Positions 25,612-28,491 of a stretch of DNA of 64,000 nt are shown piece by piece. Source of the DNA: Bacteroidota bacterium (GTDB lineage: Bacteria > Bacteroidota > Bacteroidia > JABDFU01); contig JABDFG010000001.1 of the NCBI GenBank assembly GCA_013286655.1, positions 25,459-89,458 of the forward strand, given 5' to 3'. Numbering within the stretch: position 1 is the stretch's first letter; the number at the start of each line of letters is the position of its first letter. The notes under the pieces were generated by a model. The model searched no databases and was not told the DNA's origin. It worked only from the letters and a program-made list of their open reading frames with translations. A program made the position numbers and the translations under genes.

Positions 25612-25685
25612 CGGGATGTAGCGTAGCCTGGTATCGCGCCAGCATGGGGTGCTGGAGGTCGTGGGTTCAAATCCCGCCATCCCGA
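25612..25685 (+). tRNA. tRNA-Pro (anticodon GGG)
   Basis: The acceptor arms CGGGATG and CATCCCG pair fully, followed by discriminator A. The anticodon arm CCAGC-ATGGGGT-GCTGG gives anticodon GGG with U33 and G37, and the T arm reads GTGGGTTCAAATCCCGC. The 74-base gene has no encoded CCA. It decodes CCC and CCU. An intrinsic terminator follows within five bases. Confidence 0.95.
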
Positions 25686-25689
25686 CATT

Positions 25690-25730: not shown

Positions 25731-25858
25731 CTATAGTCACCTTCTTCAGTCACTTCTGTTGGTTTTCTTCATACATACTTTTCTCAAACTCATTTATTTT
25801 GGTACCTGCAGTTCTCAATATTTTTTTCCTCTGAGGGTTACTGAAAATCATTTAACAC

Positions 25859-25875
25859 TATACTATTTTTGTATG
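25859..25875 (+). promoter_or_regulatory. Operator-like palindrome O1 of the hip locus
   Basis: TATAC-TATTTTT-GTATG. Same half-sites as the two boxes at 25899 and 25939, with one mismatch in the last base. The spacer overlaps a TATTTTTG promoter-like motif. Probably bound by the HipB-like protein (inference). Confidence 0.65.
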
Positions 25876-25898
25876 TTTTATATTAAAATTAGAATATT

Positions 25899-25915
25899 TA
25901 TACTATATTTGTATA
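25899..25915 (+). promoter_or_regulatory. Operator-like palindrome O2 of the hip locus
   Basis: TATAC-TATATTT-GTATA, a perfect 5-bp inverted repeat, exactly 40 bases after O1. It overlaps TATATTTG at 25904-25911, a full match to the -7 motif, so binding here would block transcription start. Confidence 0.7.
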
Positions 25916-25938
25916 TTTTAAATAAATAATTTACATAT

Positions 25939-25955
25939 TATACAATATTAGTATA
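25939..25955 (+). promoter_or_regulatory. Operator-like palindrome O3 of the hip locus
   Basis: TATAC-AATATTA-GTATA, a perfect 5-bp inverted repeat, exactly 40 bases after O2 and touching the hipB ATG at 25956. Confidence 0.7.
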
Positions 25956-26399
25956 ATGAAAGAGATAACTAATATAGCAGCTTTTGTTAAATACAACCGA
26001 GAGAAACTGAAACTTACCCAAGAGCGATTAGCGGAGATGGCTGGTGTAGGTATTCACTTTATCCGTGATCTGGAACAAGGTCGTTCAGCGTTACGTCTTG
26101 ATAAAGTTAATCAGGTATTAAATATGTTCGGACATCAATTAGCAACAACAACAAACAAGATCGATCCTTATAAGCTTTGGTTTAGCTATTTAGGGCAACC
26201 CGTTAAAATAACCCAAAAGGGAAACCAGGAATTTTATGGTTTTCTTATAAAAGAAATAAGAGATTCAAAAAGTGAAATTGTTGCATGGAGACTCGTGCCT
26301 AACCCTGACGCAATAGAATGGCAAAAAAAGCCAAATGATGATTTAACTACAGTCATTCAACACGCTGATATTATAGGAATTGAATTGCAAAAAAGATGA
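25956..26399 (+). CDS. HipB-like XRE-family antitoxin/repressor
   Basis: A 147-residue protein. Residues ~8-60 form an XRE helix-turn-helix: KLTQERLAEMAGVGIHFIRD, then LEQGRSALRLDKVNQVLNMF, closely matching HipB/Y4mF-type repressors. Unlike E. coli HipB (88 residues), about 75 residues follow (KLWFSYLGQPVKITQKGNQE to the end), with a beta-rich look and no family I recognise. It should repress its own operon by binding the TATAC-N7-GTATA boxes just upstream. The next gene overlaps it by four bases (ATGA), so the three genes form one operon. Confidence 0.85.
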   Translation: MKEITNIAAFVKYNREKLKLTQERLAEMAGVGIHFIRDLEQGRSALRLDKVNQVLNMFGHQLATTTNKIDPYKLWFSYLGQPVKITQKGNQEFYGFLIKEIRDSKSEIVAWRLVPNPDAIEWQKKPNDDLTTVIQHADIIGIELQKR

Positions 26400-26713
26400 A
26401 ACGAGGTAAAGTAATTATAAGTAATACTGTTGTCGGTCATGTTTGGCAGGACGAAAATGGATATTGGTTTAAATACACAGATGAGTATTATAATAATCCA
26501 ATTCATGGCCCGGTAAGCCAAACATTGCCGGTTGAAGTACAAACCCACAACGACAAAAGATCGATGATTCCTTTTTTTGACGGACTAATACCGGAAGGAT
26601 GGTTATTCGACATTGCAATTGATAATTGGAAGATCAACGAAAAAGACAGAATGGAATTATTGTTAACAGTATGTAAAGATTGCATAGGTGCAGTAAGTAT
26701 CGAAAGAGAATAA
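26396..26713 (+). CDS. HipS-like protein (HipA N1 domain alone)
   Basis: A 105-residue protein equal to the N-terminal subdomain of HipA: a short beta-sheet start (KVIISNTVVGHVWQDENGYW), FKYTDEYYNNPIHGPVSQTLP, the hallmark IPFFDGLIPEGWLFD (~58-72) and the end CKDCIGAVSIE. In two-gene hipBA systems this domain is fused to the kinase. Here it is a separate gene, as in E. coli O127 hipBST, where HipS is the antitoxin that blocks HipT with a tryptophan; W69 in the PEGW motif is a candidate counterpart. It overlaps hipB by four bases and hipT follows after one base. Confidence 0.84.
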   Translation: MKRGKVIISNTVVGHVWQDENGYWFKYTDEYYNNPIHGPVSQTLPVEVQTHNDKRSMIPFFDGLIPEGWLFDIAIDNWKINEKDRMELLLTVCKDCIGAVSIERE

Positions 26714-26714
26714 A

Positions 26715-27674
26715 ATGAAAACTAAAACAAATAAATGCTTATACTGCTATGAAGATTTGAAAGAAAATGAAATGGATTTTCATTCAAAATGCAGTAAAAA
26801 ATTCTTCGGCATAGCAACTCCACCAACTCTCTCTTTAACAAAAGAAGAATTAAATAAGATGGCAAGAGAGATTATTAAAAGAAGTGTTACAATACCTGGT
26901 GTGCAACCCAAACTTTCATTGAGTCTCAAAAAAAATTCTACCGATCCGAAAAAATCAAGACTTACTATAGTTGGTCTTTGGGGGGAATACATTTTAAAAC
27001 CCCAATCAGACCGCTATGAATGTATGCCCGAAAATGAAGATTTAGTAATGCATTTGGCAGAAAAAGCAGGAATAAATACTGCCCGCCACACTTTATTAAG
27101 AACGGAGTCCGGGCAATTAGTATATGTCACAAAAAGATTTGATAGAGTTGATAAAAAAAAGGCACCAATGGAAGACTTTTGTCAACTCGCCGGCAAATTA
27201 AGTGCAGATAAATACAAAAGCACCATAGAGGCTGCAGGTTTATTGATATCAAAATATTCATCTCCTTCTTCAAAAACAACTGATCTGATTACTTTTTTTG
27301 ATATTGCTATTTTCTCCTTTTTAGTTGGTAATTCAGATATGCACTTAAAGAATTTTTCAATCATAAAAGATGAAGAAAACCAATACAAGTTGTCTCCGGC
27401 ATACGACTTAATGTCAACCAACCTGGCGATGCCATCCGACAAGGAAGAAGTAGCACTCAGTCTTCATAAAAAGAAACACAGATTAAGTAGATATGACTTT
27501 GTTTCGTTTGGAAAACATATAGGATTAACAGATACTCTGATACAAAAAGCTCTTGACAAATATGATAAAGAAATGCTGAATGAATTTGAAAAATTTACTT
27601 CAATCAGCTTTCTGCCGGATGATTTAAAAGATAAATTTATTTCATTAATGAAATCCCGCTTCAAAATATTATAG
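26715..27674 (+). CDS. HipT-like Ser/Thr kinase toxin
   Basis: A 319-residue HipA-type kinase without the N1 domain. In order: a Cys/His cluster CLYC-x11-HSKC (residues 8-26) resembling a small zinc site; the Gly-rich loop RSVTIPGVQPKLS with possible phospho-acceptors S57 and T59; the ATP-lysine in WGEYILKP (~95); VTKRFDR; catalytic GNSDMHLKN (D208); and metal-binding LSPAYDLMS (D231). E. coli HipT has S57/S59, D210 and D233 in the same places (known family data). Such kinases inactivate aminoacyl-tRNA synthetases (GltX for HipA, TrpS for HipT); the target here is unknown. All kinase residues are present, so it looks functional. Confidence 0.86.
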   Translation: MKTKTNKCLYCYEDLKENEMDFHSKCSKKFFGIATPPTLSLTKEELNKMAREIIKRSVTIPGVQPKLSLSLKKNSTDPKKSRLTIVGLWGEYILKPQSDRYECMPENEDLVMHLAEKAGINTARHTLLRTESGQLVYVTKRFDRVDKKKAPMEDFCQLAGKLSADKYKSTIEAAGLLISKYSSPSSKTTDLITFFDIAIFSFLVGNSDMHLKNFSIIKDEENQYKLSPAYDLMSTNLAMPSDKEEVALSLHKKKHRLSRYDFVSFGKHIGLTDTLIQKALDKYDKEMLNEFEKFTSISFLPDDLKDKFISLMKSRFKIL

Positions 27675-27731
27675 TCATTTAGTTTTGCTTCTTAGACCTG
27701 TCAAACAATACCATCTTTTTACCCATAAAAG

Positions 27732-27814
27732 CTTATATTGGAAAATATTTTCCAAAAACCACATTATAATGGAATAAACTTGATTTTAGAGCGAATTTTG
27801 TGATTATAATGGAA
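27732..27814. repeat. Short direct repeats and palindrome after the hip locus
   Basis: ATTATAATGGAA occurs at 27763-27774 and 27803-27814, 40 bases apart, with a related CTTATATTGGAA at 27732. The last overlaps a perfect 18-bp palindrome TTGGAAAATATTTTCCAA (27738-27755). The stretch lies between hipT and a terminator, with no ORF of note. Confidence 0.6.
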
Positions 27815-27866
27815 AAAATCACATGCTTATACGGAGGGGAAATTGAAAATTGTCCCTGTATAAAGA

Positions 27867-27933: not shown

Positions 27934-28491
27934 TTACATCTGTTCTGATTCAACTTCAACCGCTTCCAGATTGATCGTCGATTCTGCAATCTCCGTCAGC
28001 TTTTCATCGGCTGATTTTTCCTGATCAAGAATTTCTTCTAATAGATTGCGGATTTCCGTTAATCCTAAAATCTGAGCAAACGTGCAAAGGCTGCCATAGG
28101 ATGCTATTTCGTAATGCTCTACTTTTTGTCCGGCAGAAATAATTCCTGCATCACACATGGCCCCTTTATCACAGTTTTTCATGATTTCTTCCGCCTCCTT
28201 AATCAGACCGTCCATGGCTTCACACTTTTTAGCCTGGGCTTTTTTGTTTAACAGCTCGAACACCTGTTCTACCTTTTGAACATGTCCTTCCGTCTCCTCC
28301 AGGTGATTTTCGATCGCTTCAATCAACTCATCGGAGGTGGCATTTTTAATCATTTTAGGCAGCGCTTTTGTAAGCGCTTTTTCAGCCCAGTACATGTCTT
28401 TTAATTCGTCCTCGAATAATTTCCTTAAACTGGATTCCTCCATAGCATATTCTGGCGATTTTTTTTTGGATGATCTATCCGTTGTTTTCAT
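27934..28491 (-). CDS. YciE/YciF-like ferritin-fold protein (DUF892)
   Basis: A 185-residue, highly acidic, all-helical protein. The pattern LRKLFEDELKDMYWAEKALTKALPKM, then EAIENHLEETEGHVQKVEQVFEL, and YEIASYGSLCTFAQILG matches the DUF892/YciF ferritin-like family, which forms four-helix bundles with a putative di-metal site. Expression in relatives is often tied to stress, but its reaction is not known. It has four Cys around residues 90-120 (KKCEAMD, KNCDKGAMCD). It is transcribed alone toward the hip locus. Confidence 0.88.
   Translation of the reverse strand: MKTTDRSSKKKSPEYAMEESSLRKLFEDELKDMYWAEKALTKALPKMIKNATSDELIEAIENHLEETEGHVQKVEQVFELLNKKAQAKKCEAMDGLIKEAEEIMKNCDKGAMCDAGIISAGQKVEHYEIASYGSLCTFAQILGLTEIRNLLEEILDQEKSADEKLTEIAESTINLEAVEVESEQM

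What the first reader, a model, noticed from the sequence alone, without database searches (positions are those of the whole stretch)
25859..27674. Tripartite HipB-HipS-HipT-like toxin-antitoxin locus in a Bacteroidota genome
Three tightly linked genes (4-base overlap, then 1-base gap) encode an XRE regulator, a stand-alone HipA N1 domain and a HipA-type kinase lacking that domain. This is the arrangement of E. coli O127 hipBST, in which the antitoxin role moved from HipB to HipS. All kinase residues are present, and the key positions (S57/T59, D208, D231) fall within two residues of those of E. coli HipT. The HipB here is much longer and the kinase has its own Cys/His cluster, so it may be a separate branch of the family with a different target.
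Basis: partly seen in the sequence, partly recalled or inferred. Interest (0 to 1): 0.75.

Follow-up and report, generated by a model that had tools for sequence, protein, structure and literature searches.

The report
Three-gene HipBST kinase toxin-antitoxin locus
A Bacteroidota bacterium carries a three-gene self-poisoning kinase module (HipBST) of an already described and, in this group, common kind; it belongs to a sub-branch whose DNA-binding protein carries an extra, uncharacterised domain, and the module sits beside a tRNA gene where related bacteria gain and lose DNA.

Summary
In detail: hipB (25956-26399), hipS (26396-26713) and hipT (26715-27674) form a hipBST operon, and all three proteins match their families. 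HipT is closer to Legionella HipT (171 bits) than to E. coli O127 HipT (56 bits), and HipBST-Lp homologs are already reported as widespread in Bacteroidota. A related HipT (E<=1e-30) occurs in 95 of 395 genomes of this class.

Corrections: the Gly-loop reads T59-I60-P61 at the E. coli S57/S59 positions, so "S57/T59" is misaligned by two residues. The Cys/His cluster is a trait of the whole Bacteroidota group, not of this kinase.

New here: (1) HipB's extra 80 residues are a conserved domain without database matches, found in 9 of 395 class genomes, always in hipBST, and marking one clade. (2) Three TATAC-N7-GTATR operators at exactly 40-bp steps; a 40-bp operator period recurs in 29 of 29 relatives tested. 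(3) Nineteen of 29 relatives have Ala at the usual autophosphorylation site. (4) The cassette occupies a tRNA-Pro site that is empty in two congeners; it is 97.5% identical to a congener's copy whose flanking genes are 72-74% identical.

HipS as antitoxin is inferred. Target unknown.

The parts
25859..25875 (+). operator O1 TATACTATTTTTGTATG
   Evidence: TATAC-N7-GTATR: 3 sites in the window, all here, 0.11 matches expected by chance in 64 kb
25899..25915 (+). operator O2 TATACTATATTTGTATA (palindromic arms)
   Evidence: exactly 40 bp after O1; contains TATATTTG
25904..25911 (+). Bacteroidota-type -7 box TAnnTTTG (TATATTTG) inside O2
   Evidence: TAnnTTTG lies upstream of hipB in 21 of 30 related loci, 1.1 expected after shuffling; the consensus itself is from own knowledge
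25939..25955 (+). operator O3 TATACAATATTAGTATA, abutting the hipB start codon
   Evidence: exactly 40 bp after O2; 40-bp period in 29 of 29 loci
25956..26399 (+). hipB: XRE/HTH autoregulator, 147 aa
   Evidence: TIGR03070 E 3e-22, PF01381; Legionella HipB 8ezt
26154..26399 (+). HipB C-terminal domain (residues 67-147), uncharacterised
   Evidence: no Pfam, PHROG or PDB match; conserved in 9 of 395 class genomes, always within hipBST
26396..26713 (+). hipS: stand-alone HipA N1 domain, predicted antitoxin, 105 aa
   Evidence: PF13657 E 1e-21, TIGR03071 E 4e-26; HipS structures 7vkb_B, 7ab3_B
26594..26602 (+). HipS E67-G68-W69, aligned to E. coli HipS Glu63/Trp65
   Evidence: alignment; PEGW in 28 of 29 group loci
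26715..27674 (+). hipT: HipA-like Ser/Thr kinase lacking N1, predicted toxin, 319 aa
   Evidence: PF07804 E 7e-48; 7vkb/8ezr E 5e-49
26736..26792 (+). HipT CxxC-x11-HxxC cluster (C8, C11, H23, C26), putative zinc knuckle
   Evidence: invariant in the group alignment
26889..26897 (+). P-loop T59-I60-P61, at the E. coli S57/S59 (Legionella S54/Q56) positions
   Evidence: alignments
27336..27407 (+). catalytic D208 (27336-27338) and Mg-binding D231 (27405-27407)
   Evidence: invariant SDMHLKN and AYDL motifs
25612..25686 (+). tRNA-Pro(GGG), border of the variable site (context)
   Evidence: ARAGORN; followed directly by the OmpA gene in G002 and G003

Best explanation
This is an intact type II toxin-antitoxin module of the HipBST kind, on the Legionella-HipT side of the family. 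[quoted passage not shown] HipS, the split-off N1 domain, binds the N-lobe and, through E67/W69, wedges that loop outward, keeping the kinase off. HipB is a DNA-binding dimer that represses the operon from three operators at 40-bp steps (one over the -7 box, one against the start codon) and presumably tethers HipT-HipS to the promoter. If HipS is lost, HipT phosphorylates an unknown target and stops growth. Shown here: genes, motifs, operators, clade and context. Inferred from characterised relatives: toxicity, neutralisation by HipS, operator binding. Unknown: the target and the role of HipB's extra C-terminal domain. The module is horizontally mobile cargo at a tRNA-Pro site.
For: Operon order and domains. 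HipT matches Legionella HipT at 5e-49 alone and 3e-79 as a profile, against E. coli HipT at 121 bits as a profile. Kinase residues are invariant. HipS carries the Glu and Trp that were shown in E. coli to enter the active site. Three operators, 0.11 expected by chance; the 40-bp period is the top lag over all relatives (13.5 against a median of 8.7) and exceeds each locus's own 95th percentile in 29 of 29. Legionella hipBST likewise has three evenly spaced operators that HipB binds, and HipS rather than HipB neutralises (PMC10653801). Occupied and empty sites in congeners and 97.45% against 72-74% identity.
Against: No function was tested. HipB here has an extra domain that could give it a neutralising role that short HipBs lack. 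The operators are AT-rich, and O1 is imperfect. Both AlphaFold runs were of low confidence (pLDDT 41 and 57).
Confidence: 0.85

Rival explanations
1. In this long-HipB branch the C-terminal domain of HipB takes part in neutralisation, so that HipB and HipS act as joint antitoxins, or the domain senses a signal that releases the kinase.
For: The domain is conserved over about 80 residues in eight lineages at 37-46% identity, occurs only in HipB of hipBST, and marks one supported clade (97/97). It therefore has a function tied to the module.
Against: No domain match of any kind and no reliable model. HipS in this branch keeps the Glu and the aromatic wedge residue, so its role looks unchanged.
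Confidence: 0.25
2. The module is a decaying or inactive remnant.
For: It lies in a variable site with another TA-like fragment in a congener and an operator-like relic downstream.
Against: All three frames are open, every catalytic residue is present, and the copy 97.45% identical in a congener is also intact in all three genes.
Confidence: 0.05
3. It is an anti-phage (abortive infection) or element-maintenance cassette rather than a persistence module.
For: Located at a tRNA-Pro site of gain and loss; an AbiEi-family gene lies beside it in the congener; five predicted viral contigs carry full hipBST.
Against: No defence-specific partner gene in the window; PADLOC gives only weak partial matches to a candidate defence kinase family, PDC-M03A. 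This is compatible with the best explanation, not an alternative mechanism.
Confidence: 0.35

Closest known systems
HipBST of Legionella pneumophila (lpg2368-2370; PMC10653801, PMC9325769)
   Same: Gene order, split HipA architecture, nearest HipT by sequence (171 bits), HTH HipB, three evenly spaced operators upstream; homologs already reported in Bacteroidota.
   Different: P-loop TIP instead of SVQ; HipT has a full CxxC..HxxC cluster; HipS has Trp69 (Legionella Ile); HipB has an extra 80-residue domain; operators at 40-bp steps rather than with 53-bp gaps.
HipBST of E. coli O127 (PMC6581861, PMC10627512)
   Same: Gene order and split architecture; HipS PEGW with the Trp shown to block the active site.
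   Different: HipT only 56 bits; SxS double phosphosite replaced by TIP; the E. coli target TrpS cannot be assumed.
HipBA of E. coli K-12
   Same: Kinase fold and XRE HipB.
   Different: N1 domain is fused in HipA; HipB is the antitoxin; operators are TATCC-N8-GGATA (own knowledge).
hipJS and hipIN/hipL families (PMC8262856)
   Same: Small kinase with a HipS-like partner.
   Different: Those have the partner downstream or fused, sometimes with a HIRAN domain; neither is so here.

Membership tests
HipBST | three adjacent genes hipB-hipS-hipT in one operon | tested here: met
   same order in every related locus with all three genes in its stretch
HipBST | kinase lacks N-subdomain 1 | tested here: met
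   HipT matches only HipA_C, no Couple_hipA
HipBST | stand-alone N1 protein (HipS) encoded immediately upstream of the kinase | tested here: met
   PF13657 E 1e-21; best PDB matches include HipS chains
HipBST | conserved kinase motifs (P-loop, catalytic Asp, Mg-binding Asp) | tested here: met
HipBST | Ser/Thr beside the Gly-rich loop that can be autophosphorylated | tested here: met
   T59 in the window; but Ala or Val in 20 of 29 close relatives
HipBST | HipS, not HipB, neutralises HipT | not testable with these tools
   needs growth assays; inferred only
HipBST | HipB binds operators upstream of the operon | tested here: inconclusive
   three palindromic sites at 40-bp steps found; binding not assayed
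E. coli-type HipBST subgroup | S-aliphatic-S loop and closest similarity to E. coli HipT | tested here: not met
   loop is TIP; 56 bits against 171 for Legionella HipT
Legionella-type HipBST subgroup | HipT nearest to Legionella HipT | tested here: met
   by score, single sequence and profile; no tree including the Legionella sequence was built
HipBST, E. coli target | phosphorylates TrpS | not testable with these tools
   needs phosphoproteomics or rescue; Legionella HipT was not rescued by TrpS (PMC10653801)
HipBA | N1 fused to the kinase in one HipA protein | tested here: not met
   separate ORFs

The most novel reading that the evidence does not exclude
The long-HipB branch is a mechanistically distinct HipBST in which HipB's C-terminal domain (tentatively a small beta-barrel) adds a second inhibitory contact or a signal or RNA input, and in which most group members (though not this one, which has Thr59) no longer use P-loop autophosphorylation as a switch.
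Probability: 0.15. Interest if true: 0.6.

Novelty: new variant of a known kind. Interest (0 to 1): 0.35.

Why it matters
HipBST was worked out in two Gammaproteobacteria. Bacteroidota hold many copies, apparently none tested as far as my limited literature search shows. This branch lets three points be tested: whether HipS alone is the antitoxin when HipB is larger, whether P-loop autophosphorylation matters at all (most relatives have Ala at that site), and what these kinases phosphorylate.

Tried and rejected
Structure: AlphaFold2 of HipB and of its C-terminal domain from single sequences gave pLDDT 41 and 57, so no fold search was made.

Hfq/Sm-like idea: the domain's pattern resembled Hfq by eye, but hhalign gave probability 1.3% and score 14.5, and 1 of 60 column-shuffled controls scored higher. 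Not claimed.

E. coli-type membership was rejected on scores and loop motif. The Cys/His cluster as a special feature of this kinase was rejected, since it is shared by the group. An att-site repeat of the tRNA 3' end inside the window was sought and not found. The phylum-wide profile search for the HipB domain found only the window, so the 9/395 figure applies to the class sample.

Full report
WHAT IS THERE. Three genes lie on the + strand: hipB 25956-26399 (147 aa), hipS 26396-26713 (105 aa) and hipT 26715-27674 (319 aa), with a 4-base overlap and a 1-base gap. HipB matches the couple_hipB antitoxin model (E 3e-22), HipS the HipA N-terminal domain (E 1e-21 and 4e-26), and HipT the HipA C-terminal kinase domain (E 7e-48) without an N-terminal domain of its own. 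This is the hipBST arrangement. It is the only HipA_C protein found in this 73%-complete genome.

WHICH BRANCH. Among solved structures HipT is closest to Legionella HipT (5e-49, 171 bits) and far from E. coli O127 HipT (56 bits). A profile of thirteen Bacteroidota relatives gives 270 against 121 bits. Lin et al. (PMC10653801) already reported that homologs of the Legionella system are widespread in Bacteroidota and neighbouring phyla. In a sample of 395 genomes of this class, 95 have a HipT relative at E <= 1e-30. A Bacteroidota hipBST is therefore not a discovery in itself.

KINASE. D208 and D231 and the flanking motifs are invariant. The window belongs to the T[IV][TP] loop class of Baerentsen et al. 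(PMC10627512). In 29 loci of the group the first site is Ala in 19, Val in 1, Thr in 7 and Ser in 2, so most members cannot autophosphorylate there; Zhen et al. reported that HipT binds ATP and acts independently of that phosphorylation (PMC9325769). The Cys/His cluster is C8-x2-C11-x11-H23-x2-C26, a putative zinc knuckle (inference). It is invariant in the group alignment and absent or partial in other Bacteroidota HipTs, so it marks the group rather than this kinase.

HipS. It carries PEGW (E67, W69), the Glu and Trp that in E. coli HipS enter the HipT active site, with the Trp needed for neutralisation (PMC10627512). The motif is PEGW in 28 of 29 group loci and PEGF in one. Legionella HipS has Ile at that position (alignment). 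This supports a wedge mechanism here, by homology only.

HipB. Residues 67-147 form a domain with no match in Pfam, PHROGs or the PDB. It was found in 9 of 395 class genomes, this one and a near-identical congener included, and each time in a full hipBST operon. A tree of HipS+HipT puts the long-HipB loci on one branch (97/97 support) among relatives whose HipB is only about 67-79 aa. The domain therefore appears to have been gained or lost once and kept. Its role is unknown. An Hfq-like fold was tested and not supported.

OPERATORS. Three sites TATAC-N7-GTATR lie at 25859, 25899 and 25939, exactly 40 bp apart, the last abutting the hipB start codon; 0.11 matches are expected by chance in the whole window. 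O2 contains a TAnnTTTG box. Across 29 group loci 40 bp is the best repeat lag (mean best match 13.5 of 18, median over lags 8.7), and every locus exceeds its own 95th percentile at lags 39-41, although the half-sites differ between subgroups (TATAC..GTATA, TATACCC..GGTATA, TATATG..CATATA). Loci of other HipT groups do not show this lag. Legionella hipBST also has three evenly spaced operators, with 53-bp gaps, and its HipB binds them (PMC10653801). So the layout is conserved in kind but with group-specific spacing.

GENOMIC SETTING. The cassette lies between tRNA-Pro(GGG) (25612-25686) and an OmpA/PD40 gene (28658). In congeners G002 and G003 the tRNA is followed within about 100 bp by that OmpA gene, i.e. 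an empty site. In G001 (JABDFU010000011.1) the site holds an AbiEi-family gene, hipBST and about 4 kb more. In G004 the tRNA is followed by a phage-type integrase fragment, and a copy of the tRNA 3' end precedes the OmpA gene on another contig, which suggests integration at this tRNA. The block 25841-27682 is 97.45% identical between G000 and G001, while the OmpA gene beside the site and the ABC-transporter gene (on another contig in G001) are 72% and 74% identical. hipBST is also lower in GC (33-36% against about 41% for most neighbouring genes). Recent horizontal transfer or recombination of the cassette is the simplest reading. Five predicted viral contigs carry complete short-HipB hipBST.

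MECHANISM AND LIMITS. By homology to two characterised systems, HipT is the toxin kinase, HipS holds its ATP loop outward, and HipB represses the operon from three operators. None of this was assayed, and the target is unknown; it is unknown for Legionella HipT as well, where TrpS, GltX and PheST did not rescue (PMC10653801).

VERDICT. A real hipBST of a published branch, with a distinct long-HipB sub-branch and a conserved 40-bp operator layout that I did not find described. The literature search covered open-licence papers only.

Noticed in passing
window 27738-27818: A palindrome TTGGAAAATATTTTCCAA and two copies of ATTATAATGGAA[TA]AAA exactly 40 bp apart (27763, 27803), running into a 25-codon ORF: looks like the operator array of a second, decayed toxin-antitoxin promoter just downstream of hipT.
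   Followed up: partly
L032:1749-2498 (JABDFU010000011.1): An AbiEi-family (PF09952) gene sits between tRNA-Pro and hipBST in the congener, absent from the window.
   Followed up: partly
L081:612-1495 and L082 (G004): Integrase fragment right after tRNA-Pro and a degenerate tRNA 3' end in front of the OmpA gene: signs of an element integrating at this tRNA.
   Followed up: partly
window 27934-28491: A DUF892 (PF05974) gene on the - strand lies inside the variable site, between hipT and the OmpA gene.
   Followed up: no
L043-L046, L050: Five IMG/VR predicted viral contigs carry complete hipBST with short HipB.
   Followed up: partly
L014-L019: Other Bacteroidota HipTs without the CxxC..HxxC cluster have SIS or SIQ loops, and their HipS has SEGV, PEGP and similar in place of PEGW: at least two further hipBST groups in the phylum.
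   Followed up: partly
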